A DNA stretch of 48,882 nt from Anaerolineales bacterium (GTDB lineage Bacteria; Chloroflexota; Anaerolineae; Anaerolineales; Villigracilaceae), in assembly GCA_013360875.1 (NCBI GenBank), contig JABWAU010000012.1, positions 1 through 48,882 of the forward strand. The letters are read 5' to 3'. A program made the translations under genes and the position numbers. This document shows, piece by piece, positions 28,776-44,790 of the stretch. The notes under the pieces are model-generated. The model did not search any database and was not told the DNA's origin. It saw only the letters and a list, made by a program, of their open reading frames with translations. The first letter of the stretch is position 1, and each line of letters begins with the position of its first letter.

Positions 28776-28867
28776 ATCCGCTAATCTTCGCCAATCTCCG
28801 CGAATTGCTTCAGGGTTTATCATTCAGATTTCGTGCAGATTTGCGTAGGTTGGCGGATGATTTTTTT
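28776..28867 (+). repeat. imperfect 21-base inverted repeat with decamer repeats and T7 run
   Basis: Bases 28776-28796 (ATCCGCTAATCTTCGCCAAT and one more) are complementary to 28838-28858 with about 17 of 21 pairs. The left arm runs into two decamer-like units (AATCTTCGCC, AATCTCCGCG). The right arm is followed by two bases and a run of seven T at 28861-28867. It lies between the GT2 gene and the next GT4 gene, ending a few bases before ATG 28875. It resembles dispersed intergenic repeats of Chloroflexota and also a loose terminator; which role applies is unknown. Confidence 0.5.
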
Positions 28868-28874
28868 GAATTCT

Positions 28875-30107
28875 ATGAACATTCTCTTTCTCACGCAAAT
28901 CGTTCCATACCCGCCCGATGCGGGTCCCAAGGTGAAGACGTATCACGTCATCCGTGCGTTGGCGGGGCAGGGACATTCTGTAACTCTCGTCTCGTTTGTC
29001 CGTCCAGAAGAGGTACCGCACCTGCCTGCCTTGAAAGAAATTTGCACAGCGGTTCATGCCGTACCGATTCGCAGGTCGAGAATTGCGGACGCCTTTTACA
29101 TGCTGAGAAGTTACCTCACGGGGCGACCGTTCCTCGTTGAGCGCGACGACCTTCGTCCGATGCAGGAGACGGTGAATCGGCTGGTTCGGGAAAACGACTT
29201 TCACTTCATCCATGCCGACCAGTTGACGATGGTGCAGTTCGCCGTCAGAGGGGCGGCGGCGGTTTCGGGCAAACAGCCCAAAGTCATTTTCGACGCGCAC
29301 AACGCCGTCTGGACCATCGTGGCGCGGATGAAAGATAACGCCCGCTGGTTCCTCAAACCCGTCCTTTCCGTCGAGGCGGCGCGTGTCAAACGCTACGAAG
29401 GCGGTCTCCTGCGAACGGTGGACCATGTCCTGGCAGTCACCGACATTGACCGCAGCCTGCTCGAAGAGGCGATGCACGTTTCCAATCATCATGCCGACCG
29501 CCCCGCCGCGCCCATCACCGTCATCCCGATTGCGGTGGATACGGAGAAACTCCAGCCCGTGCGGCGCAAGCCTGGCTCGAAGAACATCGTCACGCTCGGC
29601 ACTCTGCACTACCCGCCCAATGCCGACGGTATCCGCTGGTTCTTCAACGAGGTCTTCCCGCTGGTGCGCGAGCGTGCGCCAGACGCCACGCTGACCATCA
29701 TCGGCAAGAACCCGCCGGCGGATTTCAGCGAAGCGGCGGAGCGCAGCGCCGGCGCCATTCGAGTCACGGGCTATGTGGACGATCTTCGTCCGTACCTGGA
29801 GGAGAGCGCCCTGATGGTGGTCCCTGTGCGGGCGGGCGGCGGGATGCGTGTGCGCATTCTCGAAGCCTTTGCTTACGCCATGCCCGTTGTCACCACCACC
29901 GTCGGGCTGGAGGGAATCCACGCCACGCCTGATCAGGATGTCCTCGTGGCAGATACGCCCGCCGAATTTGCCAGCCGCACGGTGGAACTTCTTCATGATT
30001 TTTCCCTGCAAGACAAACTTGCCGCAAACGGCAGAACACTGGCAACGACGAAGTACGACTGGCAGGCGGTGTTATCCGCCATGCGCCCGATTTACGAGCA
30101 AGCGTAG
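28875..30107 (+). CDS. family 4 glycosyltransferase
   Basis: A GT-B enzyme of 410 residues of the same subgroup as the gene at 24363: start NILFLTQIVPYPPDAGPKVK, then IFDAHNAVWTIV, donor half IVTLGTLHYPPNADGIRWFF, and VPVRAGGGMRVRILEAFAYA in place of the EX7E consensus. The subgroup is common in exopolysaccharide clusters of gliding and filamentous bacteria. ATG 28875 is chosen because it gives the conserved N-terminus; the frame is open upstream to GTG 28833, inside an inverted repeat. The ribosome-binding site is weak, so initiation may be modest. The TAG stop lies in a hairpin with a GTAG foot. Confidence 0.9.
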   Translation: MNILFLTQIVPYPPDAGPKVKTYHVIRALAGQGHSVTLVSFVRPEEVPHLPALKEICTAVHAVPIRRSRIADAFYMLRSYLTGRPFLVERDDLRPMQETVNRLVRENDFHFIHADQLTMVQFAVRGAAAVSGKQPKVIFDAHNAVWTIVARMKDNARWFLKPVLSVEAARVKRYEGGLLRTVDHVLAVTDIDRSLLEEAMHVSNHHADRPAAPITVIPIAVDTEKLQPVRRKPGSKNIVTLGTLHYPPNADGIRWFFNEVFPLVRERAPDATLTIIGKNPPADFSEAAERSAGAIRVTGYVDDLRPYLEESALMVVPVRAGGGMRVRILEAFAYAMPVVTTTVGLEGIHATPDQDVLVADTPAEFASRTVELLHDFSLQDKLAANGRTLATTKYDWQAVLSAMRPIYEQA

Positions 30108-30132
30108 AAGACGTTCTCTAACGTCTCCTACG
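30103..30132 (+). repeat. GTAG-foot hairpin overlapping a stop codon
   Basis: AGACGTT 30109-30115, loop CTCT 30116-30119, AACGTCT 30120-30126, extended by CGTAG 30103-30107 pairing with CTACG 30128-30132 across one mismatch. The GTAG foot (30104-30107) supplies the TAG stop of the GT4 gene. It shares the CT-rich loop and GTAG foot with the hairpins at 35807 and 44634/44721. Confidence 0.6.
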
Positions 30133-30158
30133 GAACTCAGGTACGCACAAAAGGATTT

Positions 30159-31508
30159 ATGAGTAGAGAGAGTCAACCCCGCACATTCGCCATGTTTCTA
30201 AAGCGCATCAAAACCCAGCCTTTGGCATTCATCCTGTTCGTCTCTGTCGTCCTGCGAGTGGGTGCAGCGCTCCTCATGGGCACCCAGGTGGTGGAACTGC
30301 CGGGCATCTTCGACCAGGTTTCGTATCACAACCTTGCCATCCGCGTGCTGGGCGGGCATGGCTTCACCTTCGGCGAAATGTGGTGGCCCCTCACCCGCGC
30401 GGGCGAACCGACGGCGCACTGGTCGTTTCCGTACACCCTCTACCTTGTCGGCGTATATGCGCTCTTCGGCGTCCATCCGCTGGCGGGGCGCATCCTGCAA
30501 GCCGTCCTCGTCGGCGTTTTGCATCCCTTCATCACCTATCGCATCGGCGAAAAACTCTTCGGGCGAACTGTCGGTCTCATTGCCGCCGCCGTCGTCTCCA
30601 TCTATATCTACTACGTCTATTACGGCGCGGCGCTCATGACCGAACCGATCTACATCACCGCCATTCTCTTCAGCCTGTACTTCGCCATGCAGTTGGCGGA
30701 AAACGCCGATCGCAAACGGGACTTCGTCCTCGCCCTTGCGCTGGGAATCTCATTGGGACTGACCGTCACACTGCGGCAGGTCTTTCTGCTCTTCCTGCCG
30801 TTCCTCTTCCTGTGGATGTGGATCGCCCGCTTCCGACTCCGCCGAAACCTGCCTCTCCTCCCCACAGCCTTGACCTTCGCCCTGCTCTTTGCCTTCATCC
30901 TCCCCATCACCTTCTTCAATTACGCCCGCTTTCATCGCTTCGTGTTGCTCAACACCAATTCGGGATACGCCTTCTTCTGGGGCAACCATCCCCTCTACGG
31001 GACGAAGTTCATCCCCATCCTCTCCACGCCCGAATACCAGGCGATGATCCCCGAAGAAGTCCGTCACTTGGACGAGGCGGCTCTCGACAGTGAACTGCTC
31101 AAGAGGGGCATCCAGTTCGTCGTCCAGGACCCGAAGCGTTACGTCCTGTTGTCGCTCAGCCGTATCCCGCCGTACTTCATGTTCTGGTACTCATCCGACT
31201 CCAGCGCGCTGAGTAACCTCTCCCGCATCGGCAGTTTCGGAGTTTTCCTGCCGTTCATGCTGTACGGACTGGTGTTGGGCGTCCGCAGGAAGCCTTTCTG
31301 GCCGCTTGTGTTTTCTCCGCAGGGGCTTCTGCTCCTGTTTGCGCTGGTCTATTCGGGCGTGCACATCCTCACCTGGACGTTGATTCGCTACCGCCTGCCG
31401 GTGGATGCAGTCATGATTCCGTTCGCTGCGCTGGCATTGCACGACCTGTCACAGCGGCTTTCCGTGAAGTTCCCCCTCGTGCAGAGATTTATCAAGGCAG
31501 GAGAATAA
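30159..31508 (+). CDS. GT-C fold glycosyltransferase, PMT/ArnT-like
   Basis: An integral membrane protein of 449 residues with about eleven hydrophobic segments. It resembles GT39/GT83 (PMT_2, ArnT) enzymes, which use a polyprenyl-phosphate sugar donor on the outer face of the membrane. The first outward loop holds the acidic pair region (GIFDQVSYHNLAIRVLGGHG), where the Asp is the usual catalytic/metal residue in this superfamily; AHWSFPYTLYLVGVYALFGV follows, the family's conserved second loop. Acceptor and sugar are unknown. Start ATG 30159 follows an AAAGGAT site. It lies one base before deoB. A second GT-C protein is at 44847. Confidence 0.83.
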   Translation: MSRESQPRTFAMFLKRIKTQPLAFILFVSVVLRVGAALLMGTQVVELPGIFDQVSYHNLAIRVLGGHGFTFGEMWWPLTRAGEPTAHWSFPYTLYLVGVYALFGVHPLAGRILQAVLVGVLHPFITYRIGEKLFGRTVGLIAAAVVSIYIYYVYYGAALMTEPIYITAILFSLYFAMQLAENADRKRDFVLALALGISLGLTVTLRQVFLLFLPFLFLWMWIARFRLRRNLPLLPTALTFALLFAFILPITFFNYARFHRFVLLNTNSGYAFFWGNHPLYGTKFIPILSTPEYQAMIPEEVRHLDEAALDSELLKRGIQFVVQDPKRYVLLSLSRIPPYFMFWYSSDSSALSNLSRIGSFGVFLPFMLYGLVLGVRRKPFWPLVFSPQGLLLLFALVYSGVHILTWTLIRYRLPVDAVMIPFAALALHDLSQRLSVKFPLVQRFIKAGE

Positions 31509-31509
31509 G

Positions 31510-32685
31510 ATGACACTCAACCGTATGATCCTGATTGTGCTGGACGGCGTCGGCGCGGGCGAAGCGCCCGATGCGGCGGCGTATGGCGATGCGGGCAGCA
31601 ACTCGCTCGGCAACGTGGCGCGCGCCATCGGCGGCTTGAACGCCCCCCACATGTACGAACTCGGTTTGGGCAATATCACCGCCATTCAGGGCGTGCCGCC
31701 CAACCCCAACGCCAAAGGCGCATTCGGCAGATTCCAGCCGCGCTCGGCGGGCAAAGACACGGTCATCGGTCACTGGGAGATGATGGGCATCTACCTGCCC
31801 GTCGCTTTCCCCACCTACCCGAACGGCTTCCCGCCCGAAGTGCTGGACCCCTTCTGCAAGGCAATCGGGCGCGACGTGCTCGGCAACAAACCCGCCTCGG
31901 GCACCGAAATCCTCAAAGAACTGGGCGTCGAACACATGCAAACCGGCAAGCCCATCGTCTACACCTCCGCCGACAGCGTCTTTCAGATCGCCGCGCACGA
32001 GGAAATCATTCCGCTCGAAGAGTTGTACAAAATGTGCCAGATTGCCCGCGATATTCTGCAGGGCGAGCATGGCGTCGGGCGCGTGATTGCCCGTCCGTTC
32101 CTCGGCGACTCGCCCGAAACCTTCAAACGCACCACCCACCGCAGAGACTATCCGCGCAGCCCCGAATACCCCACCATGATGCAGAAACTCGTGGAGGCGG
32201 GGAAGGACGTGTACTCCGTCGGCAAGATTGACGACATCTTCAACCATCAGGGAATCACCAAAAAGAATCACGTGCTGACCAACAAGGAAAGCCTCGATGT
32301 CACACTCGACCTGCTGGAAGAGGACTTCACAGGCTTGCTCTTCGTCAACCTCATCGAGTTCGACATGATCTACGGTCACCGCAACGACCCGCGCGGGTAC
32401 GCCGACGCTCTCGAACAGTTCGACGCCTACCTCCCCGAAATCCACAAGCGCCTCAAGCCCGGCGACCTGGTCATCGTCACCGGCGATCACGGCGTGGACC
32501 CCACCACCCCCGGCACCGATCACTCGCGCGAATACGTCCCCCTGCTGGCGTTCGGACCGCGCATCAGGCACGGCGTGAACCTGGGCGACCGCGACACCCT
32601 CGCCGACATCGCCGGCACGCTCGCGGAAATCTTCTCACTTGCACCGCAGCCCATCGGCAAAAGTTTCTTGAAAGAGATTGTGTAA
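31510..32685 (+). CDS. deoB: phosphopentomutase
   Basis: A cytosolic enzyme of 391 residues that interconverts ribose (or deoxyribose) 1-phosphate and 5-phosphate, linking nucleoside salvage to the pentose phosphate pathway. It belongs to the alkaline-phosphatase superfamily and has the expected metal-site and nucleophile motifs: ILIVLDGVGAGEAPDA at the start, GKDTVIGHWEMMG (Thr nucleophile), YTSADSVFQIAAHE, and VTGDHGVDPTTPGTDHSRE near the end. Length is normal for DeoB. Its place within a glycan locus is odd: it has no evident part in polysaccharide making, but it lies in the same transcription unit-like run. Start ATG 31510 directly follows the GT-C stop. Confidence 0.95.
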   Translation: MTLNRMILIVLDGVGAGEAPDAAAYGDAGSNSLGNVARAIGGLNAPHMYELGLGNITAIQGVPPNPNAKGAFGRFQPRSAGKDTVIGHWEMMGIYLPVAFPTYPNGFPPEVLDPFCKAIGRDVLGNKPASGTEILKELGVEHMQTGKPIVYTSADSVFQIAAHEEIIPLEELYKMCQIARDILQGEHGVGRVIARPFLGDSPETFKRTTHRRDYPRSPEYPTMMQKLVEAGKDVYSVGKIDDIFNHQGITKKNHVLTNKESLDVTLDLLEEDFTGLLFVNLIEFDMIYGHRNDPRGYADALEQFDAYLPEIHKRLKPGDLVIVTGDHGVDPTTPGTDHSREYVPLLAFGPRIRHGVNLGDRDTLADIAGTLAEIFSLAPQPIGKSFLKEIV

Positions 32686-32710
32686 CCCTTTTTACAGGAT
32701 TTGTCCATCC

Positions 32711-33781
32711 ATGAAATTCGTCTCCGTCGTCGGCGCGCGCCCTGAATTTATTCAAGCCAGCCCGGTCAGCCGCGCGCTTCGCAAACACCATCACGAAATC
32801 CTCGTCCACACCGGTCAGCACTACGACTACCTCATGTCGCAGACCTTCTTCGACGAACTCGGCATCCCCGCCCCCGACTACAACCTCGAAGTCGGCTCCG
32901 GTTCCCACGCCTCACAAACCGCCGAAATCCTCGTTCGCTTCGAAGAAGTGCTCCTCAAAGAAAAGCCCGACTGCGTCATCGTGCGCGGCGACACCAATTC
33001 AACGCTGGCAGGCGCATTGGCGGCGAGCAAACTGCACATCCCTACCGTCCACATCGAAGCAGGCGAACGCAGTTTCGACCGCCGCATGCCCGAAGAAATC
33101 AACCGCCTCGTCGCCGACCGCATCGCCTCCGCCTTCTTCTGTGTTAGCCAGACCGCCGTGCGGCACCTCGCCAACGAAGGCATTACGAAGGATGTCTATT
33201 GGGTGGGCGACGTGATGCTCGACGCCAACCTTGCCAACCGTCCGCTTGCCCGCCGAAAATCCACGGTTCTGACTACGCTGGAACTTGCTCCCGGCTCCTA
33301 TGGCTTGGTCACCGTCCACCGCGCTGCCAACACCGACGACCCCGCGCGGCTGATGAACATCGTCACCGCCCTCAGCCAGGTCGGCGAGACGGTGATCTTC
33401 CCCGCCCACCCGCGCACGCGCAGCGCGTTGAGCAAACTGGACGTGCGCTTCGGTAAAAACATCCACCTCATCGAACCCGTCGGCTACTTCGACATGATGG
33501 TGCTGGAAGAGAATGCCAGGCTCATCGCCACCGATTCGGGCGGGGTCCAGCGCGAGGCGTACTTCATGCAAAAACCCTGCCTGACCCTGCGCGACGAAAC
33601 CGAATGGACCGAGACCGTCGAAGCGGGCTGGAACAAACTCGTCGGCGTGGACGTGGAGACCATCGTCCGCGAATGGAAGACCTTCACGCCGCCCGCCGAA
33701 CAGCCTCCCATCTTTGGCGATGGTCATGCCGGTGAGAAGATTGCGGAGATTTTGGGCAAGGTCTGTTTATCCATCAATTAG
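32711..33781 (+). CDS. wecB: UDP-N-acetylglucosamine 2-epimerase (non-hydrolysing)
   Basis: A cytosolic enzyme of 356 residues that converts UDP-GlcNAc to UDP-ManNAc, a precursor for many surface glycans. Family motifs are all seen: VVGARPEFIQASPV, HTGQHYDYLMSQTFFDELGI, VIVRGDTNSTLAGA, VHIEAGERSFDRRMPEE, LVTVHRAANTD and DSGGVQREAYFM. Asp of RGDTNS, the two Glu of EAGE and MPEE, and His of TVHR correspond to the catalytic residues of E. coli WecB. The usual EAGLR reads EAGERS here. A start at 32678 is rejected in favour of ATG 32711 with the conserved N-terminus. A homologue acting on a UDP-2,3-diacetamido sugar is possible. Confidence 0.93.
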   Translation: MKFVSVVGARPEFIQASPVSRALRKHHHEILVHTGQHYDYLMSQTFFDELGIPAPDYNLEVGSGSHASQTAEILVRFEEVLLKEKPDCVIVRGDTNSTLAGALAASKLHIPTVHIEAGERSFDRRMPEEINRLVADRIASAFFCVSQTAVRHLANEGITKDVYWVGDVMLDANLANRPLARRKSTVLTTLELAPGSYGLVTVHRAANTDDPARLMNIVTALSQVGETVIFPAHPRTRSALSKLDVRFGKNIHLIEPVGYFDMMVLEENARLIATDSGGVQREAYFMQKPCLTLRDETEWTETVEAGWNKLVGVDVETIVREWKTFTPPAEQPPIFGDGHAGEKIAEILGKVCLSIN

Positions 33782-33788
33782 CAACCGC

Positions 33789-33810
33789 GTCGGCGTAAGA
33801 GAACGCCGAC
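33789..33810 (-). repeat. palindrome with CT-rich loop after wecB
   Basis: GTCGGCGT 33789-33796, loop of six, ACGCCGAC 33803-33810; read on the minus strand the loop is TCTCTT. It resembles the CT-loop hairpins at 30109, 35186 and 35810 but lacks a GTAG foot (CGCA instead). It lies eight bases after the wecB stop. Confidence 0.5.
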
Positions 33811-33847
33811 TGCGCTAAAAAATTAAGAGAGCGAAAGCAAATTTGGC

Positions 33848-35170
33848 ATGGAAAATACATCAAAACAAAAAATTGGAATCATCGGCGGGGGCATCATGGG
33901 CATCAGCCTGGGCTACTTCCTCTCGAAACAGGGAGCCGCCGTCACGATCTATGAAGCGTCCCCCGTCCTGGGCGGGCTGGCAGGACCCATCACCCTCGAA
34001 GACGGCACACAGGTGGACCGCTTCTACCACGCCATCCTCTCCAGCGACCGTCACCTGCGCGGCTTGTGCGAAGAACTCGGCATCGCCGACCAGTTGCGCT
34101 TCAAAGAGACCAAAACCGGCTTCTACTACAAGAACGCCATTTACCCGATGAACAACATCATCGAGTTCCTCAAATTCCCGCCCCTCGGCTGGATTGACCG
34201 TTTCCGCCTCGGGCTCACCGTGCTGGCGGCGCAATTCATCAAAGACTGGCGCAGTCTCGAATCGGTCAGCGTGGAGGCATGGCTGCTGAAGTGGAGCGGC
34301 AGAAACACCTTCCAAAACATCTGGCGCCCCATGCTCAAAGCCAAATTCGACGGCGGCTTCGACGACGTCCCCGCCACATGGATCTGGTCGCGCCTCGTCC
34401 GCATGAAATCCACGCGCGAAGGCGCCAACCAAAAAGAGATGGCGGGGCACCTCATCGGCGGCTACATCACCCTCATCGAAGCGATGACCGAAAAAATCAA
34501 GGCGAACGGCGGGCAGGTTCTGCTCCAAACCCCTGTCAAAGAAATCGTCATCGAAAACGGCAAGGCGGTTGGCATCCGCCTGGCGAGCGGCGAAGTGATG
34601 AACTACGACAAGGTGGTCTGCACGATGCAGGCGCCCGTCTTTCAACGCCTCATCCCCAACGCCGACCCAGACTACCAGGCGGCTCTTGTGCAGACCGAAT
34701 ACCTGGGCATCATCGCCCCGCTTCTCGTCCTGACCAAGCCTCTGACCGGCAACTGGACGCTAAACATCACCGACGACCGTTTCCCCTTTACCGGCGTCAT
34801 CGAAACCACCGCCTACATTGACCCGCAATACGTCGGCGGTTATCACCTCGTGTACCTGCCCAAGTACACCGCGCCGAACAGCGAATGGCAGAAGATGAGC
34901 GACGACGAAATCAAACGCATCTGGCTCCAAAACCTGTTTGCCATGTTCCCCGAGTTCGACCCCTCGACGATCAAGTACTTCCTCATTCACCGCGAGCGTT
35001 ACGTGGAACCGCTGCACGGCTTGAACCAAACCGACGCCATGCCCAAGGTCAAGACCCCCATCGAAAGCCTCTACCTTGCCACCACCGCCCAAATTTACCC
35101 TGCACTAACCAACGGCGAATCGGTCAGCCGCCATGCGCGCGAAGCAGCGGAAGTTATTTTGGGCGCATAA
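33848..35170 (+). CDS. FAD-dependent amine-oxidase/protoporphyrinogen-oxidase-like protein
   Basis: A protein of 440 residues with the Rossmann dinucleotide motif IGIIGGGIMGISLGYFL and following YEASPVLGGLAG, as in flavin amine oxidases, carotenoid desaturases and protoporphyrinogen oxidases. The C-terminal FAD-binding part is LYLATTAQIYPALTNGESV. Proteins of this group are common in polysaccharide clusters, where they are thought to act on sugars or polyprenyl lipids, and some resemble UDP-galactopyranose mutase. The substrate is unknown here. Start ATG 33848 is fixed by the conserved glycine motif. No membrane segments. It lies between wecB and a sulfotransferase, each side bordered by a hairpin. 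Confidence 0.8.
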   Translation: MENTSKQKIGIIGGGIMGISLGYFLSKQGAAVTIYEASPVLGGLAGPITLEDGTQVDRFYHAILSSDRHLRGLCEELGIADQLRFKETKTGFYYKNAIYPMNNIIEFLKFPPLGWIDRFRLGLTVLAAQFIKDWRSLESVSVEAWLLKWSGRNTFQNIWRPMLKAKFDGGFDDVPATWIWSRLVRMKSTREGANQKEMAGHLIGGYITLIEAMTEKIKANGGQVLLQTPVKEIVIENGKAVGIRLASGEVMNYDKVVCTMQAPVFQRLIPNADPDYQAALVQTEYLGIIAPLLVLTKPLTGNWTLNITDDRFPFTGVIETTAYIDPQYVGGYHLVYLPKYTAPNSEWQKMSDDEIKRIWLQNLFAMFPEFDPSTIKYFLIHRERYVEPLHGLNQTDAMPKVKTPIESLYLATTAQIYPALTNGESVSRHAREAAEVILGA

Positions 35171-35185
35171 ACCCCGCCCGCCTAG

Positions 35186-35205
35186 TGGACGCTCTCTAGC
35201 GTCCA
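35186..35205 (+). repeat. 8-bp palindrome with CTCT loop
   Basis: TGGACGCT 35186-35193, loop CTCT, AGCGTCCA 35198-35205, perfect. The foot is CTAG rather than GTAG. It lies 15 bases after the FAD gene stop and 17 bases before ATG 35223. The loop is identical to that of the hairpin at 30109, with a different but fully paired stem. Confidence 0.6.
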
Positions 35206-35222
35206 TGTTATGGAGAGAGTTA

Positions 35223-35810
35223 ATGGAACAAACAGATTACATTATCGTCGTTTCCGGTCTGCCGCGTTCGGGCACCTCCATGATGATGAAGATGCTCGAA
35301 GCCGGCGGCTTGCCCATCCTCACCGACAATCTGCGCGCGCCCGACGCCAACAACCCCAACGGCTACTACGAATTCGAGCGCGTCAAGCAATTGCCGGAGG
35401 GGGATTACGGCTGGCTCCCCGAAGCGGGCGGAAAGGTCGTCAAAATTGTGACCGGTCTTATCATGCACCTCCCGTCCGATTACAAATACAAGGTCATCTT
35501 CATGCAGCGGGCGATGAAGGAGGTGCTCTCCTCCCAAAAGAAGATGCTTGGTCGGCTGGGAAAGGAGGATGACCGGATCGAGGACGAAAAGATGCGCAAG
35601 ATTTATCAGGAACACCTCAAGCAGGTGAACGCCTGGCTTGCCAAACAGCCCAACATGGACGTCCTGTACGTGAATTACAATACGATGCTGGCAGACCCGC
35701 TCGAGTCGCTGCAAAAGGTCAACGAGTTTCTGGGCGGCGGCATGGATGTCAACGTCATGGCGGGGGTGGTGAACAAGGAACTGTATCGAGAGAGAAAGTC
35801 AAACGTGTAG
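35223..35810 (+). CDS. small sulfotransferase-family protein
   Basis: A protein of 195 residues. The 5'-phosphosulfate loop is clear: VVSGLPRSGTSMMMKMLEAG near residues 10-29, where RSGTS binds the 5'-phosphate of PAPS. A second conserved stretch, VIFMQRAMKEVLSSQKKML, matches the 3'-phosphate region, and NYNTMLADPLESLQKVNEFL closes the domain. It would move sulfate from PAPS to a hydroxyl or amino group, presumably of a glycan in this locus. It is shorter than typical (250-300 residues). Start ATG 35223 has GGAGAG upstream; the frame extends back through the hairpin to 35133 but that part overlaps the FAD gene. Its TAG stop is the foot of the next hairpin. Confidence 0.85.
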   Translation: MEQTDYIIVVSGLPRSGTSMMMKMLEAGGLPILTDNLRAPDANNPNGYYEFERVKQLPEGDYGWLPEAGGKVVKIVTGLIMHLPSDYKYKVIFMQRAMKEVLSSQKKMLGRLGKEDDRIEDEKMRKIYQEHLKQVNAWLAKQPNMDVLYVNYNTMLADPLESLQKVNEFLGGGMDVNVMAGVVNKELYRERKSNV

Positions 35811-35831
35811 CCGGCGTTCTTTAACGCCGGC
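35807..35831 (+). repeat. GTAG-foot hairpin overlapping a stop codon
   Basis: GTAG 35807-35810, stem CCGGCGTT 35811-35818, loop CTTT, AACGCCGG 35823-35830; the pairing extends to G35810 with C35831. The TAG of the foot is the stop codon of the sulfotransferase gene. Same architecture as at 30104 and 44721. Confidence 0.62.
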
Positions 35832-35870
35832 AGACCTGCCAAGAAGATGATGGAGTAGAAAGGAAAAAAT

Positions 35871-36113
35871 ATGAACCTGTTTATCAATCTGTTCAGTCTG
35901 ATGGGACCGCTTCGCCCGCCCGAATATCTCGGACCGGAAACGCTCATGCCGCTGGCGTCCGTCCTGGCGGCAATTGCCGGCTTCTTTTTATTGTTCTGGC
36001 GGCTCATCGTGAAGTTCTTCAAGACCCTGTATCGCAAGGTGCGCGGCTTGCCCGATGAAGTTCCGCCCGAAGTGGATTTGGACGATCCTACCGAAGAAGA
36101 ACAGGAAAAATAG
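35871..36113 (+). CDS. small membrane protein of unknown function
   Basis: An 80-residue protein with one clear hydrophobic helix (about 26-45: LMPLASVLAAIAGFFLLFW), then a basic amphipathic stretch (KFFKTLYRKVRG) and an acidic tail (DLDDPTEEEQEK). The helix start and the basic cluster suggest an N-out/C-in anchor with the acidic tail in the cytoplasm. A good AAAGG ribosome-binding site precedes ATG 35871. It is not recognisable as a known family. It stands 90 bases ahead of the phosphodiesterase gene and may be its membrane partner; that is a guess from position. Confidence 0.7.
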   Translation: MNLFINLFSLMGPLRPPEYLGPETLMPLASVLAAIAGFFLLFWRLIVKFFKTLYRKVRGLPDEVPPEVDLDDPTEEEQEK

Positions 36114-36203
36114 CCGCTCTTGCAGGTTGAGCGCGCAGCAATCGTTCCCGAACGTTGTTTGCGCCACAACCACCCCTGAGCCAATAGATCGATTCCATAC
36201 GCG

Positions 36204-38045: not shown

Positions 38046-38659
38046 ATGTTTTGGTCTTGAATTTTCCCGGCGCCGAACGCGCCGCCCTGTTCGCCGACGA
38101 ACGTCTCGAAAACCTGCGCCGCCTGATGGACATGGGATGCTTCGGCGCGCTTGCCGCCTCCGGCGAATGGAACGTCCTTGCCCGCCAGGAAAACCATACC
38201 CTCACCCTGATGGAATACTTCCAGCAGGCGGACAAACTCTGCGTGGACACCAGCGACCCGGTCACCCTGCGCGAAAAACTCTCGGTGGGCGATTGGGACT
38301 ACCTCCAGTACACCGCCGCTTCCTCCCCCGCCGGCAACTGGTCTGCCGACGACTACCTGCGCCTCGACCGGGACTTGGGCGAAGCGCTCCAGGAACTGAG
38401 CGACGACACGATCATCCTCATCCTCGGCAGGGACTGCTTCGTGCTGGTCGCTGCCGGCAACCCCCTCAGCGGAGAGTACAGCGGCGGCTCCGCGGCAGAC
38501 ATTGCGCCCACGCTCGTGCAGTTGGCGGGCTTTCCGCTTCCCTCCGCCACCGAGGGCAAATCGTGGGTGGCAGGCATGGAGTTGAACAATGCTTCCGGTC
38601 TCACAGAGGACGAGCAACAGATCCTGCGGGATCGCTTGAGCGGATTAGGGTATATATAA
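38042..38659 (+). CDS. degenerate alkaline-phosphatase-superfamily protein (likely pseudoenzyme)
   Basis: A 205-residue protein coupled by ATGA to the intact phosphodiesterase. It seems to keep the fold outline of that family but not the active site. NVLVLNFPGAE replaces the KVIVIGLDGFE start, losing the metal Asp; ILILGRDCF stands where IVLSDHGM would be, losing the Asp-His metal pair; the nucleophile region is gone. The ending IAPTLVQLAGFPLPSATEGK and the final LRDRLSGLGYI match family ends closely. It is about one third the usual length, so it looks like a shrunken, catalytically dead relative that may regulate or scaffold its neighbour. No frameshift is visible, so it is probably a real gene. 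Confidence 0.72.
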   Translation: MNVLVLNFPGAERAALFADERLENLRRLMDMGCFGALAASGEWNVLARQENHTLTLMEYFQQADKLCVDTSDPVTLREKLSVGDWDYLQYTAASSPAGNWSADDYLRLDRDLGEALQELSDDTIILILGRDCFVLVAAGNPLSGEYSGGSAADIAPTLVQLAGFPLPSATEGKSWVAGMELNNASGLTEDEQQILRDRLSGLGYI

Positions 38660-38667
38660 CCCGCCCT

Positions 38668-38764
38668 GCGCAGAACATCCTGAAGGCGATGTCTTGCGCC
38701 TGTCGAAGGGGTTCCAGGAATCAGGCAAGTCTGCTTATAGTCAAAATCTTTGGGACAGTGCATA
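38668..38764 (+). repeat. degenerate, interrupted copy of the 87-base repeat
   Basis: Bases 38668-38686 match the segment at 44661-44679 in 18 of 19 positions, and 38743-38764 match the ...ACCTTTGGGGCAATGCATA part in about 19 of 22. Between them lie about 56 unrelated bases where the full copies have about nine. The whole 138-base gap before the next gene consists mostly of this element. Its right end overlaps CATAAT, a possible -10 box. Confidence 0.5.
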
Positions 38765-38797
38765 ATATTTGTCGGTTAGTGTTAAAAGGAAATGACG

Positions 38798-40645
38798 ATG
38801 AAAAAATTCAACAAAGAGATCGCAACGGAGATTCTTTATTATTCGGTCTGGTTTGGCTTGCTGACCGGGCTGGTGGAAGGGGTCCTGCTTTTCGTCTTTT
38901 CGCGCTTCGAACTACTGAAGGGACAGATCACCTATCTCGGCTCCGGCTGGGAGGTGTTGTGGGTTGCGCCGATCTTCGACCTTTTATTGTTTCTTGCCGC
39001 CGGTTTGTTTCTGGCTTTGATCGCGCAGTTCCTTCCGCAGATGTGGGCGAAGCGATTGTCGCTGTTCGCCTTCTCCTTCCTGCTGGCTTTTTCCTGGCTT
39101 GGGATCTACCTCTCCGGCAGATTGTCCCCGGCGGCGACCCTCATCCTCGCGGCGGGGATCGGCTATCAGTTGTCGTTGTCACTGTACGAGCGTGAGAAGA
39201 GGTTCGTTCCCTTTGTAAAAAGAAGTGCAAAAGGATTCGGTATTCTCACACTTGCCCTGCTGGTTGTCATCCAGGGTGGCTACTGGATCGGGGAGCAGAT
39301 CGCGGTGCGGAACCTGCCTCAGGCGAAAGAGTCCGCTCCGAACGTTTTGTTCATCGTCATTGACACGCTGCGCGCGGACCATCTATCGCTTCACGGGTAC
39401 GACCGGGTTACCGACCCCAACCTTGTTCGCATCGCCAGCGGAGGCGTCATGTTCGAGAACGCCTACGCCACCTCCTCGTGGACGTTGACCGCCCACGCCT
39501 CCCTCTTCACCGGTCGCTGGCCCTACGAACATAAAGCGGACGGCGGGCGTGATCTCGATGACACCTATCCCACCATTGCAGAGGCGCTCACCGCGCGCGG
39601 TTATCGCACTGGCGGTTTCATTGGAAATTTCGAAACCGTCCCAAGGCGCTGGGGTTTTGCGCGCGGTTTTCTCCATTATGAGGATTATTATCAAACCCTT
39701 CCTCAATTGGCGGTCAGTTCGTTCTACGGTCGCTTTTTGGAATATTACGCCCTGCACAAGGTCTTCGGCATGGAATTCTCCATTGACCGCCTTTGGGCGC
39801 CCACCGTCAACCGATCCGCGCTGGATTGGATTGACCAGGATACCGAAAGACCGTTCTTTGCCTTCATCAACTATTACGACGTCCACGCGCCGTACATCTC
39901 ACCGGAACGCGCCCGCTTCTCCGAATTCGAGAATCCCGGCGGGCTGGTGAACACGGACTGGACGACAGCCGACATCTACAACCCGAAGACCCCGGAGCAG
40001 GTCCAGGGTGAGATTGATGCGTACGACGGCGGCATCTATTACAACGACCAGCAGATCCAAATCCTGTTGGACGAAATGGAAAAACGCGGCGTTCTGGAAA
40101 ACACCATTGTCATCATCACCTCCGATCACGGCGAGTTGTTCGGCGAACACGGGTTGTGGGAACATCACAATTCCCTCTATCGCCCGGTGATCTACGTCCC
40201 GTTGATCGTTTGGCAGCCCGGCTCCGTCCCGCAAAACGTGCGGATTGACACCCCCGTCTCCAATGCCGCCATCCCCGCCACCATCCTGGACATGCTCGGC
40301 GAACCGGCGCAGGACCTCTTCCCCGGTCCCTCGCTGGCGGAACTCTGGCGCGACCCCTCTTCCGCGGCTCGCTTCCCCGACCCGATTGCGGAAATGGCTG
40401 AATCGCCCTGGGTCAACCCCAATCATCTCTCCATCAAAGGCGACATGGTCACCGTCATATCTTCCGACTGGCAATACATCGAGCATGAATTCAACGGCGT
40501 CGAACTCTACAACCTCAAAGACGACCCCGAACAGTTGAACAACCTCGCCGTTGAACAGCCCACCGTGCTGAACCGGCTCAAACAATATTACCTGGACGCC
40601 ATCGCCAAACTCGGTCTCACCTGGCCCTACGAGATCGAGAAATGA
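38798..40645 (+). CDS. membrane-anchored sulfatase-fold protein, Thr at the nucleophile position (copy 1)
   Basis: A protein of 615 residues. Residues 1-170 hold about five hydrophobic segments; residues 180-600 are an outward-facing sulfatase-fold domain: NVLFIVIDTLRADHLS (metal Asp189), SSWTLTAHASLFTGR (226-240), YYDVHAPY and ITSDHGELFGEH (Asp443/His444). In FGly sulfatases the aligned CxPxR/SxPxR motif gives a Cys or Ser at the position of Thr229 here, so formylglycine cannot form. Thr is the nucleophile in phosphoglycerol and phosphoethanolamine transferases (LtaS, EptA), so a phospho-group transferase or phosphodiesterase is more likely than a sulfatase. ATG 38798 is preferred over 38792 because AAAGGA lies seven bases before it. 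Confidence 0.85.
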   Translation: MKKFNKEIATEILYYSVWFGLLTGLVEGVLLFVFSRFELLKGQITYLGSGWEVLWVAPIFDLLLFLAAGLFLALIAQFLPQMWAKRLSLFAFSFLLAFSWLGIYLSGRLSPAATLILAAGIGYQLSLSLYEREKRFVPFVKRSAKGFGILTLALLVVIQGGYWIGEQIAVRNLPQAKESAPNVLFIVIDTLRADHLSLHGYDRVTDPNLVRIASGGVMFENAYATSSWTLTAHASLFTGRWPYEHKADGGRDLDDTYPTIAEALTARGYRTGGFIGNFETVPRRWGFARGFLHYEDYYQTLPQLAVSSFYGRFLEYYALHKVFGMEFSIDRLWAPTVNRSALDWIDQDTERPFFAFINYYDVHAPYISPERARFSEFENPGGLVNTDWTTADIYNPKTPEQVQGEIDAYDGGIYYNDQQIQILLDEMEKRGVLENTIVIITSDHGELFGEHGLWEHHNSLYRPVIYVPLIVWQPGSVPQNVRIDTPVSNAAIPATILDMLGEPAQDLFPGPSLAELWRDPSSAARFPDPIAEMAESPWVNPNHLSIKGDMVTVISSDWQYIEHEFNGVELYNLKDDPEQLNNLAVEQPTVLNRLKQYYLDAIAKLGLTWPYEIEK

Positions 40646-40653
40646 TCGGAAAA

Positions 40654-40675
40654 GTACCGCAAGATTCATCTTGCG
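40654..40675 (+). repeat. GTAC-foot hairpin, first of an inverted pair
   Basis: GTAC 40654-40657, stem CGCAAGAT 40658-40665, loop TC, ATCTTGCG 40668-40675, perfect. With the hairpin at 40713-40734 on the other strand it forms an inverted pair about 60 bases apart, like a BIME. It fills the 123-base gap between the twin sulfatase-fold genes. Confidence 0.6.
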
Positions 40676-40707
40676 AAATGCCGGACGATTGCCGACCATG
40701 AATGAGC

Positions 40708-40740
40708 GCAAACGCAAACTGAAGTTTGCAGTACGTTTGC
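40708..40740 (-). repeat. GTAC-foot hairpin, second of an inverted pair
   Basis: Read on the minus strand: GTAC (40734-40731), stem TGCAAACT (40730-40723), loop TC, AGTTTGCG (40720-40713), seven or eight pairs. An outer pair, GCAAACG 40708-40714 with CGTTTGC 40734-40740, offers an alternative fold. Same architecture as the hairpin at 40654, with a different stem sequence that still pairs. Confidence 0.55.
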
Positions 40741-40768
40741 AGTGTCGCGCGCCATGCGAAGTAAGTGA

Positions 40769-42616
40769 ATGGAATTCATGACAATAAAAAATAATGTTCA
40801 AACCCGCCCGAAGGAAATTTTCACTCTTGCGATTGCCATCGGACTCATCGCCGGACTTGTGGAGGGTGTATTATTTCTCTCCCTCCATCGCGCCGAACTG
40901 TTGACCTGGCGTTTGCAGAACCGCGCCATCTGGTACGAAACCCTGTGGATCGCCCCGCTGGTGGACTTCGTTCTGTTCACGCTGGCGGGGGGCTTCTTCG
41001 CGTTGGCAAGCTGGCTGTTCCCGCGCGTTCCGGTCAAAAAGATCGCGTGGTTCGTTTTCGTGTTCCTGGCTGTCTTCGACTGGGCCTTCATCATCCTGTT
41101 CGGCAGGATTTCATTGATCGCCATCCTCATCCTCGCGGCGGGGAGCAGTTTTCAGGTTTTCAATTCCTTCCTGAAACGTGAAGCCGTCATTTCACTGCAA
41201 CTTCAAAAGTCATTGCCCCGGCTGGCAGTTGTGACTATTGCCCTCCTTGTCGCAATCCAGGGCGGGGGATGGCTCAATGAGAGGATCAGGATATCCAGCC
41301 TGCCCGAGGCAAATGCCGACGCGCCGAACGTGATCGTCATCGTGGTGGACACCCTGCGTGCGGATCATCTTTCCTCATATGGCTATGATCGTGACACCAG
41401 TCCCTTCATGGACAGCCTTGCCGCGGAAGGTGTCCGCTTTGAGAACGCCATCTCGCCCTCTTCGTGGACACAGCCCGTACACGCCTCCATGCTGACGGGA
41501 CGTTACACGTACGAAACCCAGGCTGAGACCCAGCCCTTGGATGATACCTATCCCACCATCGGTGAGGTTATGCAAGCCAGCGGCTATCGCACCGGCGGAT
41601 TCTCGGCGAACACGCTTTTCTTCACCCGCCGTCAGGGACATGGGCGCGGTTTTATGCACTTTGAAGATAATTACCAGTCCGTGCCGGATGCGTTCTTCAA
41701 CTCCTCCCTGTACGGCTACATCTTTGACTTCTATGGTTTGCGGAAAGTCCTGAACTACGAGGGTGTCCCTACCCGGGTCCTTGCTTCGGATATCAACCGT
41801 TCCGTCCTTGACTGGATTGATCGGGATACCAACAAACCTTTCTTCGTTTTCATGAACTACTTCGATGTTCACGACCCCTATACACCGCCGGAACCTTATC
41901 GAAGTAAATATGCCTCGGTGCCGAACCCCGGCGGATTGGTCAACGGCTTCATGGAACGTTATGCCCCGTCACTCACGCCCGAGCAGATCCGGTCTGAGAT
42001 AGATGCGTACGATGGCTCGATCTCCTATGTAGACGACCAGATCAAGAACCTTTTCGGTGAATTGGAAACACGCAGCTTGCTCGAAAACACCATCGTGATC
42101 GTCCTCTCCGACCACGGCGAATCGTTTGGCGAACATGGATTGCTCCAGCACAGCGCGTCGTTGTATCTGGACGAGATCCACGTCCCGTTGATCGTGTGGA
42201 ACCCAGCCTACATCCCAGCCGGGAAAACGATTGATGCGCCCGTATCGTTGACCTCCCTCCCCTCGACCATCCTCTCGTTAGTCAATGCAAAGGACAACCC
42301 ATTTCCCGGACCATCCCTTGCCACTTTGATGTTCAGTGACGAGATCCCCGCGGATTGGCCCGACCCGATCTCCGAACTGGCGAAAATGGAAGGCGCAGCC
42401 GAAGTCAACCCCTCCACGCACGGCGCGATGAAATCGGTGGTCGGCGCAGAAATGCAGTATATTCATCATGAAGCCTTTGGCGAGGAACTTTACAACTGGC
42501 GCGAAGACCCGCAGGAAACCAACAATCTTGTCAACGACCCCGCCGCCCGCGAAGCCCTGAGCGGCTTCCGCCTCTACCTCAAAACCCTGCTTGGACAGCT
42601 CTTTCAACTGCCATGA
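40769..42616 (+). CDS. membrane-anchored sulfatase-fold protein, Thr at the nucleophile position (copy 2)
   Basis: A protein of 615 residues, a tandem paralogue of the gene at 38798 with the same layout: about five N-terminal membrane segments, then an outward sulfatase-fold domain with VIVIVVDTLRADHLSSYGYD, SSWTQPVHASMLTGRY, NYFDVHDPYTPPE and VLSDHGESFGEHG. The position of the sulfatase Cys/Ser is again Thr (SSWTQ). The two copies differ in the membrane part and in the ends of the catalytic domain, so they may serve different acceptors. Two starts are possible, ATG 40769 and ATG 40778. It overlaps the next, Tat-exported protein by ATGA, linking the two functions. Confidence 0.85.
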   Translation: MEFMTIKNNVQTRPKEIFTLAIAIGLIAGLVEGVLFLSLHRAELLTWRLQNRAIWYETLWIAPLVDFVLFTLAGGFFALASWLFPRVPVKKIAWFVFVFLAVFDWAFIILFGRISLIAILILAAGSSFQVFNSFLKREAVISLQLQKSLPRLAVVTIALLVAIQGGGWLNERIRISSLPEANADAPNVIVIVVDTLRADHLSSYGYDRDTSPFMDSLAAEGVRFENAISPSSWTQPVHASMLTGRYTYETQAETQPLDDTYPTIGEVMQASGYRTGGFSANTLFFTRRQGHGRGFMHFEDNYQSVPDAFFNSSLYGYIFDFYGLRKVLNYEGVPTRVLASDINRSVLDWIDRDTNKPFFVFMNYFDVHDPYTPPEPYRSKYASVPNPGGLVNGFMERYAPSLTPEQIRSEIDAYDGSISYVDDQIKNLFGELETRSLLENTIVIVLSDHGESFGEHGLLQHSASLYLDEIHVPLIVWNPAYIPAGKTIDAPVSLTSLPSTILSLVNAKDNPFPGPSLATLMFSDEIPADWPDPISELAKMEGAAEVNPSTHGAMKSVVGAEMQYIHHEAFGEELYNWREDPQETNNLVNDPAAREALSGFRLYLKTLLGQLFQLP

Positions 42617-44637
42617 CCAAACGCAAACTCACCCGCAGAGAGTTTCTCAAACTTGCCGGCGCCGGCGCAGCAGTAACAGCCCCGCTCGCCCTCGGAGGAG
42701 GAGCCTATTTTTACCGCAACGCGCTCGGAGAAGTCCCGCGCGAACGTTCCCCCTATGTCGAAATCACCCACACCGCCAGCCTCGACGGCTCCGTGCCGCT
42801 CCTGCTCATCGTGGACAAAACCTCCGCCAACCCGTTTGGGATGTACTTCACCGAAATCCTGCGCGCCGAGGGGCTGAACTGCTTCCACACGGCGGATCTT
42901 TCCACGCTCCAGCCTGAGTCGCTCCAACGCTACGAAGCCGCCATCCTGACCGAATCTTCCCTCACCCCTCAGCAGGTGGAGATATTCGCCAACTACGTCG
43001 CGCGCGGCGGACGCCTCGTCGGCATGAGACCGGCCGAGGGTCTTGAATCAGTGTTCGGCGTCGAAAGAAGCGCGGGCGTCTTCCTCGAGGGCTACCTCAA
43101 GACCGATTCCGCCCATCCTGCCGCGGCGGGCATCCAGTCCTCGTCTCTGCAAATTCACGGCGAGTCGCATCTCTTCACGCTAAGGGAGGCGCAGCCCGTT
43201 GCCTGGCTCTACGCCGACCGTGACACGCCGACCGAAAATCCTGCCATTACCCTCAATGGTTTTGGCGAGGGGCTGGCAGTTGCCTATGCCTTCGACCTGG
43301 CGAAGTGCATTGCGCTGATGCGGCAGGGCAACCCGAAATTGATTGACCAGGATAACGATGGCTTGCCGGGCATCCGCACGGTGGATAAATTCGCCGGCTG
43401 GATTGACCTCGAGCGCATCCACATCCCGCAGGCAGACGAACTGCAAAGGCTGTTCGTCAATTTGCTGATGCAATTGAGCCGCACGCCCCTGCCGCGTTTC
43501 TGGTACTTTCCCGAAGACAAAAAGTGTGTGCTGATTGCCACCGGCGACTCGCACATGAACCCCGCCAACTTCATCGAAGACGTGCTTTCCCGCGTGGAAG
43601 CGCGCGGCGGTCACTTTACCGTCTATTACGCGCCCCAAATCGTCAGCGACATCGGGCGCGCCGAACGCCTGGCGCGCTTCTGGGTCACCGACAACATTCC
43701 GCTGGCTTCGGATGTTTTGGGCAAAGAGTTCGGCTCGCCTACCCCGCTCATGGTAGATGGATGGCGCGCGCGCGGGCATGAGATTGCCCTGCACCCCTAC
43801 GTGGATACCGAACTGGAGGGCGGCTGGCTCGAATACTGGAAGGAATTCACGGGTAGAGGCTACGCCCCCGTCCCGCACACCGTCCGCACACACCGCGTTT
43901 TATGGAGCGGCTGGACCGAAACCGCCCGCTGGCAGGCAACCCTCGGCATCCGCATGAACTGCGACTACTACCACGTCGGTCCATCCCTGCAAAAGAAAAA
44001 CGGCGAATGGCCCAACGGTCACCTGACCGGCAGCGGACGCCCGATGAAATTCGTGGACGAGCACGGGCGCATCCTCGACATCTACCAACAACTCACCCAA
44101 TTCGCCGACGAACACCTCATCCCCATGGATGTGCCCGGCTGGGGCGGCTGGCCCCAACTTACCGCACAGCAGGCAGTGGCAGCCGCCGCAGACCTGCTCG
44201 ACCGTTCCCTCCACGGCGACTACTCCGCCATCTGCGGTCAATTCCACGTAGACCCCTTTCAGGTGGGCGGCGAGCCGGCGGAAAAGGCTGGCATCTTCCT
44301 CGAAGGCACACTCGACTTTGCCAGAGAACGCGGCATCCCTATCCTCTCCGCCCAGGAATGGCTGCGCTTTACCGACTTGCGCCACGACGCCGACTTTACC
44401 AGCCTCGTCTGGGATGCCGCCGCTTCTGCTCTGACCTTTCACCTGCTCCCGCCCAACCAGCCTGATTCCACACTGACAGTTCTCCTCCCCATCCGCCACG
44501 CCGAAAAGACCCTCGCCTCCGTGAACGTGGACGATGTAACAACCACCCTGGACAAACGTCTCGTACTTGGCGGCGTGGAGTATGCGCTGGTCATTGTCAG
44601 CGCACAGGAACACGTCATCCGCGCTGGGTACCTGTAG
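42613..44637 (+). CDS. Tat-exported amidotransferase-like / polysaccharide-deacetylase-like fusion
   Basis: A protein of 674 residues. The N-terminus has a twin-arginine motif (TRREFLKLAGAGAAV, with the pair at about 8-9), so it is exported folded. Residues about 60-270 resemble a class I glutamine-amidotransferase/ThuA-like flavodoxin fold (LLLIVDKTSANPFGMYF, AAILTESSLTPQQVEIFANY). Residues about 300-590 resemble a polysaccharide deacetylase: LIATGDSHMNPANFIED, GHEIALHPYVD and RTHRVLWSG. A metal site is suggested by Asp/His in GDSH and HPYVD. It may remove acyl groups from surface glycans, or act as a carbohydrate-binding protein. The coding sequence ends within an 87-base repeat whose TAG serves as stop. 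Confidence 0.7.
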   Translation: MTKRKLTRREFLKLAGAGAAVTAPLALGGGAYFYRNALGEVPRERSPYVEITHTASLDGSVPLLLIVDKTSANPFGMYFTEILRAEGLNCFHTADLSTLQPESLQRYEAAILTESSLTPQQVEIFANYVARGGRLVGMRPAEGLESVFGVERSAGVFLEGYLKTDSAHPAAAGIQSSSLQIHGESHLFTLREAQPVAWLYADRDTPTENPAITLNGFGEGLAVAYAFDLAKCIALMRQGNPKLIDQDNDGLPGIRTVDKFAGWIDLERIHIPQADELQRLFVNLLMQLSRTPLPRFWYFPEDKKCVLIATGDSHMNPANFIEDVLSRVEARGGHFTVYYAPQIVSDIGRAERLARFWVTDNIPLASDVLGKEFGSPTPLMVDGWRARGHEIALHPYVDTELEGGWLEYWKEFTGRGYAPVPHTVRTHRVLWSGWTETARWQATLGIRMNCDYYHVGPSLQKKNGEWPNGHLTGSGRPMKFVDEHGRILDIYQQLTQFADEHLIPMDVPGWGGWPQLTAQQAVAAAADLLDRSLHGDYSAICGQFHVDPFQVGGEPAEKAGIFLEGTLDFARERGIPILSAQEWLRFTDLRHDADFTSLVWDAAASALTFHLLPPNQPDSTLTVLLPIRHAEKTLASVNVDDVTTTLDKRLVLGGVEYALVIVSAQEHVIRAGYL

Positions 44638-44790
44638 GGCAAGTCTCTGATTTGCCTTGAGCGCAGCACATCCTGAAGGTTTTCATTAAAACCTTTGGGG
44701 CAATGCATAACTGGGTACCTGTAGGGCAAGTCTCTGACTTGCCTTGAGCGCAGCACATTCCGAAGGTTCCCATTAAAACCTTTGGGGCGA
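44624..44790 (+). repeat. two tandem copies of an 87-base repeat with GTAG-foot hairpins
   Basis: Copy 1 starts at 44624, copy 2 at 44711, about five differences over 79 bases. Each has GTAG (44634-44637; 44721-44724), then GGCAAGTC, loop TCT and its complement (perfect in copy 2, one G-U in copy 1), then a second stem in which CCGAAGGTT pairs with AACCTTTGG with one G-U. The TAG of copy 1 is the stop codon of the upstream gene, and the last four residues (AGYL) are partly encoded by the repeat. This accounts for most of the 209-base gap. Confidence 0.7.

What the first reader, a model, noticed from the sequence alone, without database searches (positions are those of the whole stretch)
30103..44743. 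REP-like hairpin family with GTAG foot and CT-rich loop at gene ends
Hairpins at 30103, 35807, 44634 and 44721 have GTAG directly (or one base) before a 7-8 bp stem and a loop of TCT/CTCT/CTTT. Stems differ in sequence but stay paired, so structure rather than sequence is kept. Related palindromes with CT-rich loops but other feet lie at 33789 and 35186. In enterobacteria and relatives, REP elements have a GTAG tetranucleotide at the hairpin foot that is recognised by the RAYT Y1 transposase. In three of these places the TAG of the foot is the stop codon of the gene before it.
Basis: partly seen in the sequence, partly recalled or inferred. Interest (0 to 1): 0.6.

Follow-up and report, generated by a model that had tools for sequence, protein, structure and literature searches.

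The report
REP hairpins with their RAYT transposase
The hairpins belong to a well-known class of small mobile bacterial repeats (REP elements) spread by a dedicated transposase; here they form a large family in a Chloroflexota bacterium, and related genomes show them arriving at gene ends and supplying new stop codons.

Summary
The window is one contig of a 3.99 Mb draft genome whose nearest named relatives are Anaerolineales (Chloroflexota). Four hairpins (30102-30129; 33788-33815 minus; 35180-35207; 35805-35832) form one family, consensus GCGTAGnn-GACGTT-CTCT-AACGTC. A covariance model finds at least 144 copies genome-wide; stems covary, 71 of 86 copies lie between ORFs, 23 of 84 have an inverted partner. 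A RAYT gene (NCBIfam NF047646; only PDB match TnpArep 4ER8) has five copies within 300 bp. CTCT-loop hairpins flank 9 of 9 close RAYT homologues (65-97% identity) and 0 of 18 distant ones. The hairpins at 44634 and 44721 are a second, small family (11 pattern matches) and two copies of one 87-bp tandem duplication; a second RAYT is its likely partner.

All four family-1 sites are empty in three same-genus relatives. At two sites the TAG of the foot is a derived stop codon. Against a simple story: three REP-rich relatives lack a detected close RAYT, and genome-wide the foot is not significantly enriched as a stop (p = 0.20). REP/RAYT systems and GTAG feet as stops are in print: new member of a known kind. 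REP dimers inside a TIR mini-element are less ordinary.

The parts
30102..30129 (+). Family-1 REP copy, foot GCGTAG; TAG at 30105-30107 is the stop codon of ORF 28833-30107
   Evidence: 39.8 bits
33788..33815 (-). Family-1 REP copy on the minus strand, foot GCGCAG
   Evidence: 38.4 bits
35180..35207 (+). Family-1 REP copy, foot GCCTAG
   Evidence: 37.7 bits
35805..35832 (+). Family-1 REP copy with CTTT loop, foot GTGTAG; TAG at 35808-35810 is the stop codon of ORF 35133-35810
   Evidence: 35.9 bits
44634..44656 (+). Family-2 GTAG hairpin, loop TCT; TAG at 44635-44637 is the stop codon of ORF 42613-44637
44721..44743 (+). Family-2 GTAG hairpin, second copy
44624..44788 (+). Tandem duplication (units 44624-44701 and 44711-44788, spacing 87) that carries both family-2 hairpins
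   Evidence: family D4, 94% identity

Best explanation
The hairpins are REP elements, small non-autonomous mobile DNA. Family 1 (four copies in the window, at least 144 in the genome) is paired with the RAYT encoded at G000:C94:16966-17499, a HUH/Y1 single-strand transposase. By analogy with studied TnpAREP enzymes it recognises the folded single-stranded hairpin, its CTCT loop and its GTA(G/A) foot, and cuts and rejoins single-stranded DNA so that copies appear elsewhere. Copies are found mostly between genes, presumably because insertion there is tolerated. Once a copy lies at a gene end, the TAG of its foot can become the stop codon when the older stop is displaced or mutated. Family 2 (44634, 44721) is most likely the REP family of a second RAYT at C32. 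Shown by sequence: family, copy number, covariation, association with this RAYT clade, presence/absence between relatives, derived stops at two sites. Inferred: recognition, cleavage, strand transfer, the link of family 2 to the second RAYT.
For: Pattern 125 against 6 control; model matches at least 144. Covariation: 93 cells changed on both sides against a shuffled mean of 29.3, 0 of 500 shuffles as high; pair 10/23, left free by the search, is paired in 69 of 69. 71 of 86 copies between ORFs against 629 of 4300 random places. Inverted partner in 23 of 84 against 34 of 1680. RAYT by NCBIfam at 120.4 bits, cut-off 80; only PDB match TnpArep 4ER8; five model matches within 300 bp of the gene, 0.04 expected. 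CTCT hairpins within 300 bp in 9 of 9 close and 0 of 18 distant homologues. All four sites empty in G009, G005 and G002. Derived stop codons at two sites.
Against: Three REP-rich relatives (G007 105, G019 112, G014 80 pattern hits) have no RAYT homologue at E <= 1e-10; none of their fetched RAYT-family loci (G007 4 of 4, G019 4 of 4, G014 2 of 5 matches) is flanked by CTCT hairpins. G003 has a 69% homologue but only 5 pattern hits. Two covariation measures are not above shuffles (pairs with a double change 5 against 4.5; pair types 15 against 13.2), and the two outer pairs fail in 25 and 24 of 69 copies. Foot as stop not enriched genome-wide, p = 0.20. Five of the 18 distant loci have a flank shorter than 300 bp on one side. 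No biochemistry.
Confidence: 0.93

Rival explanations
1. The hairpins are intrinsic transcription terminators at gene ends that resemble each other by convergence.
For: Copies lie mostly between ORFs, 42 of 71 between unidirectional and 15 between convergent genes.
Against: Only 4 of 86 copies have a run of four T after (or A before) the stem. Loop, foot and core stem are shared genome-wide, copies come and go between relatives, and the same hairpins flank a RAYT clade.
Confidence: 0.02
2. They are conserved structured RNA elements (regulatory 3' UTR or small RNA).
For: Compensatory stem changes; REPs in other bacteria are transcribed and can act in RNA (PMC3733652, passages).
Against: No Rfam match in the window; copies occur on either strand relative to genes, in inverted dimers and arrays, and sites are empty in relatives.
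Confidence: 0.03
3. Family 1 is mainly moved by the TIR transposon whose mini-elements carry REP dimers, and the RAYT association is secondary.
For: 19 of the 144 model matches share one core sequence and score, and the copies of that core that were read lie inside TIR elements. G007, G014 and G019 are REP-rich without a detected close RAYT.
Against: G007 has 105 pattern hits but one forward and one reverse TIR match. None of the four window copies is in a TIR element (no C161 place among the listed TIR matches, a list that is capped at 100 of 133; none seen in the sequence read). No autonomous transposon was found.
Confidence: 0.04
4. Chance palindromes in GC-rich DNA.
For: Stems of at least 7 bp as such are not in excess in the window (16 against 18.2).
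Against: GTAG hairpins 3 against 0.2 in the window; family pattern 125 against 6 genome-wide.
Confidence: 0.005

Closest known systems
GTAG REP families 1-24 and REPtrons (PMC3733652, 2013; passages and section 5 read)
   Same: GTAG-type foot, 6-9 bp stem, short loop, inverted dimers, intergenic position, RAYT flanked by the same repeats, TAG of the foot as stop codon, RAYT missing in some REP-bearing genomes, REP dimers inside longer palindromes. GTAG repeats are reported from Chloroflexi there, and T. roseum GTAG-23 is named.
   Different: The consensus figure could not be seen, so identity with a listed family cannot be excluded. T. roseum GTAG-23 is described as clustered at few loci; these copies are dispersed over many contigs. 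The foot here is more variable at its last base.
Marinomonas REPtron Mb, group 3 TnpAREP (PMC8266576, passages)
   Same: Small perfect palindrome, 4-nt loop, two bases between GTAG and the stem; RAYT with repeats gathered beside it.
   Different: Loop there is TTTA, here CTCT; the two bases here are paired in about two thirds of copies. RAYT phylogenetic group not tested.
E. coli TnpAREP (PDB 4ER8)
   Same: Only PDB sequence match to this RAYT; the HUH and tyrosine regions align.
   Different: E. coli REPs have bulged stems (PMC8266576, passages); these stems are perfect. The sequence match is weak (E 1.4e-7).
A. variabilis GTAG-15 dimers inside long palindromes (PMC3733652, passages)
   Same: A REP dimer enclosed by longer inverted ends, like the TIR mini-element here.
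   Different: Here the ends show 3-bp target duplications, and the same ends enclose other cores in G056.

Membership tests
REP element (GTAG type) | Short palindrome of about 20-40 bp able to form a hairpin | tested here: met
   28-bp unit; 89.9% of 552 pair cells paired, with covariation
REP element (GTAG type) | GTAG or close variant at one foot | tested here: met
   Of 80 copies: GTAG 35, GTAA 20, GTAC 5, GCAG 6, others 14; degenerate feet are reported in other families (PMC3733652, section 5)
REP element (GTAG type) | Many dispersed copies, mostly extragenic | tested here: met
   125 pattern matches against 6, at least 144 by model, 71 of 86 between ORFs
REP element (GTAG type) | Inverted dimers | tested here: met
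   23 of 84 against 34 of 1680 random places
REPtron (REP plus RAYT) | RAYT-family gene flanked by the same repeats | tested here: met
   NF047646 at 120.4 bits; five model matches within 300 bp; 9 of 9 close homologues flanked
REPtron (REP plus RAYT) | HUH motif and catalytic tyrosine in the RAYT | tested here: met
   DHLHLL and YIHMNPV align with 4ER8; role of residues not tested
REPtron (REP plus RAYT) | RAYT cuts and rejoins the REP single strand | not testable with these tools
   Needs purified protein
REP family 2 (44634, 44721) with second RAYT | Same repeat beside the second RAYT | tested here: inconclusive
   Related GACAAA stems flank the C32 gene, but not the exact window stem
Intrinsic terminator | Stem followed by a T-run | tested here: not met
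   4 of 86
Rfam RNA family | Match above gathering score | tested here: not met
   0 matches in the window

The most novel reading that the evidence does not exclude
In these Anaerolineales, REP dimers have a second vehicle: a 92-93 bp mini-element with 16-bp terminal inverted repeats (TCAGTANNTCACGAAA) and 3-bp target duplications. It carries several different REP dimers in REP-1 genomes and other palindromic cores in G056, which lacks REP-1 above background. The TIRs would be a chassis with exchangeable hairpin cargo, so that REPs spread by two unrelated transposition routes.
Probability: 0.3. Interest if true: 0.5.

Novelty: new member of a known kind. Interest (0 to 1): 0.33.

Why it matters
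It extends the REP/RAYT pairing to a large, clean family in Anaerolineales. The match between one RAYT clade and one loop type (9 of 9 against 0 of 18) makes a concrete prediction: the enzyme reads the CTCT loop. The genus holds genomes with REPs and RAYT, with REPs but no detected cognate RAYT, and with empty sites, a usable natural series for asking what happens to REPs once their transposase is lost and how REP insertion changes gene ends.

Tried and rejected
One family for all hairpins: rejected; 44634 and 44721 differ in stem and loop and are one duplication. REP landing behind an existing TAG stop: rejected for the two sites compared, where the ancestral stop lies upstream and the TAG is derived; the 44634 site was not compared. 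Genome-wide enrichment of the foot as stop: not shown, p = 0.20. Intrinsic terminators: rejected. An autonomous transposon with the mini-element's TIRs: two TIR pairs 2.7 and 4.2 kb apart in G056 enclose ordinary-looking genes and no transposase that I recognised by eye; no family search was run on them. A first dimer count with too strict a loop definition gave 11 of 83 and was replaced by the wider one, 23 of 84. A first scan of 315 kb gave five GTAG hairpins against 1.0 in shuffles, but all five lay in three contigs chosen because they already held a hit; the count free of that choice is.

Literature: eight searches, of which only listings and abstract beginnings were seen. Opened: PMC3733652 (passages; section 5), PMC6006769 (passages), PMC8266576 (passages). 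'Anaerolineae' with 'repetitive extragenic palindromic' gave 0 papers; 'Villigracilis' with 'transposase' gave 0. One search listed 12 papers with 'rayt' and 'Chloroflexota'; no listed title concerns REPs, and they were not opened. The library lacks most subscription papers.

Rows dropped: of 73 distinct 28-mers four whose foot was out of register were left out of A1 (69 rows). Copies with the core GGCGTTCTCTAACGAC were left out and of the 80 copies counted; one search also left out copies within 400 bases of the start of the strand read. In one search, 22 rows stand for about 20 elements (one nested in another, one read on both strands).
Full report
Setting. The window is the whole contig C161 of a 3,987,936-base draft genome in 208 contigs.

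The hairpins are real. The sequences are as described. Perfect stems of at least 7 bp are no more common than in shuffles (16 against 18.2), but those with GTAG or CTAC at the foot number 3 against a mean of 0.2 and a maximum of 1 in 30 shuffles.

Family 1. The pattern RNCGYTCTYTWRCGNY has 125 matches in the genome against 6 for the reversed control. Four are in the window: 30110, 33792 (minus), 35188 and 35813. Aligning 69 distinct copies gives GCGTAGnnGACGTTCTCTAACGTCGnnn. The stem covaries: 93 cells changed on both sides against a shuffled mean of 29.3, and pair 10/23, left free by the search, is paired in 69 of 69 as AU, GC or CG. Two measures do not exceed shuffles (pairs with a double change 5 against 4.5; pair types 15 against 13.2), and the outer two pairs fail in 25 and 24 of 69. 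A covariance model finds 144 matches at E up to 0.01; only 150 of 1905 candidates were scored, so this is a lower bound. Feet in 80 copies: GTAG 35, GTAA 20, GTAC 5, GCAG 6, others 14. Copies lie between ORFs in 71 of 86 cases against 629 of 4300 random places (ORFs by a simple length rule, not a gene caller). An inverted partner lies within 50 bp in 23 of 84 against 34 of 1680.

The transposase. Y1_Tnp matches three places in the genome. The 178-aa protein at C94:16966-17499 is NF047646, REP-associated tyrosine transposase, 120.4 bits with cut-off 80. Its only PDB match is TnpArep 4ER8, aligned over the HUH region (DHLHLL) and the tyrosine region (YIHMNPV). Five model matches fall within 300 bp of the gene; 0.04 are expected. 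In the 27 loci found with it, CTCT-loop hairpins lie within 300 bp in 9 of 9 with 65-97% identity and in 0 of 18 with 30-42%; five of the 18 have one flank shorter than 300 bp. Among 20 RAYT loci taken from six relatives, CTCT hairpins sit beside the gene in four only (G006:C53, G009:C76, G012:C343, G003:C292). Several of the other loci have hairpins with 2-nt loops, and L220 has a CTCT hairpin about 2.4 kb from its gene.

Distribution. In 61 genomes including this one, the pattern is far above its control in this genome (125), G019 (112), G007 (105), G014 (80), G006 (75), G012 (45) and G009 (43), slightly above in G011 (15) and G017 (14), and at most 9 elsewhere, about the level of the control. 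RAYT homologues of 69-96% are in G006, G009, G012 and G003. So G007, G014 and G019 have many copies without a detected close RAYT, and G003 has the gene with 5 hits. Of the RAYT-family matches in these three, 4 of 4, 2 of 5 and 4 of 4 were fetched (G007, G014, G019) and none has CTCT hairpins beside it. In G014, 6 of 15 copies read keep GCGTA at the foot against 56 of 80 here (p = 0.04): it fits decay, weakly. RAYT-family proteins in general occur in 51 of 61 genomes.

Empty sites and stop codons. The region 28.8-36.3 kb has orthologous stretches in G007, G006, G009, G005 and G002. G009, G005 and G002 have no CTCT or CTTT hairpin with a stem of at least 5 bp anywhere in the fetched stretches of 6.3, 7.6 and 7.5 kb, although G009 carries 43 copies elsewhere. 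G007 has copies at all four sites (site 1 degraded, others beside it); G006 at three, partly as tandem arrays, and a GA-rich repeat at the fourth. At site 1 the protein ends IYE or IYEE in the three empty genomes and IYEQA, IYEQV or IYEAA in the three with a REP, the stop being the TAG of the foot. At site 4 it ends RERK in G007, G006, G005 and G002; here that stop is a sense codon and the protein runs on by SNV to the TAG of the foot; G009 differs (RERKKALA). So at both sites the REP supplied a new stop. PMC3733652 states that GTAG termini often provide the TAG stop (passage). Genome-wide here the excess is not significant.

Family 2. 44634 and 44721 are one 87-bp tandem duplication. The pattern GTAGSRCAARTN{1,6}AYTTGYS has 11 matches against 0 in the control. 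The second RAYT (C32; 79.5 bits against cut-off 80, 80.2 with its neighbours) ends on the TAG of a GTAG-GACAAACT hairpin and has related hairpins upstream; C171 has a dimer of GGACAAATT and GGGCAAGTT hairpins. The link between family 2 and this RAYT is plausible, not shown.

TIR mini-element. Copies with the core GGCGTTCTCTAACGAC (19 of the 144 matches by their common score) lie, where read, in a 92-93 bp element with ends TCAGTANNTCACGAAA. The ends match 133 times with up to one mismatch, 0 in the control. About 20 elements read in full fall into several subtypes, each with a pair of inverted hairpins of the CTCT kind by eye; 10 of 11 with both flanks show a 3-bp duplication. The ends occur without mismatch in 20 of 61 genomes. 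In G056 (88 matches) seven elements read have other palindromic cores; one in G014 has a REP-1 dimer; one of 68 bp in G009 has no hairpin of this kind. REP dimers inside longer palindromes are reported from A. variabilis (PMC3733652, passage), so the arrangement has a precedent; exchangeable cores would be the new part.

Verdict. A real REP/RAYT system, a new member of a known kind. Recognition, cleavage and strand transfer are inferred from TnpAREP work (PMC8266576, passages), where the Marinomonas REP-Mb, with a 4-nt loop and two bases between GTAG and stem, has nearly the same layout and its loop matters.

Noticed in passing
Own genome, e.g. G000:C1:35031-35122 (L239), C14:1391-1482 (L252); G056:C1:2669-2750 (L286): A 92-93 bp TIR mini-element with 3-bp target duplications carries REP dimers here and other palindromic cores in G056; 133 end matches in the own genome, 0 in the control.
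   Followed up: partly
G007, G014, G019: Relatives with 80-112 family-1 pattern hits but no detected close RAYT; in G014 the feet look degraded.
   Followed up: partly
L007:523-1896 (G000:C40): A 457-aa protein with a C-terminal IS200-like domain (62.6 bits, cut-off 55) in which, by eye only, the HUH motif seems to be missing: possibly a domesticated Y1 domain.
   Followed up: no
L030:18866, L034, L048, L072, L105 and others: Eleven family-1 copies with GACGCT or GACGTT stems share a longer conserved flank ending in GGACTTTGCGCTGTAATACTAA or a variant, a possible further composite element.
   Followed up: no
L234 (G006), orthologue of window 30108 and 35171: Tandem arrays of REP units where this genome has a single copy.
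   Followed up: no
L234 (G006), orthologue of window 35811: A GA-rich repeat (gagtggaaagtgg-like) fills the place of the REP.
   Followed up: no
window 39104-40230 and 41090-42216; 8943-9499, 13805-14358 and 15196-15752: Sets of diverged paralogous coding stretches near each other (62-82% identity in the repeat list).
   Followed up: no
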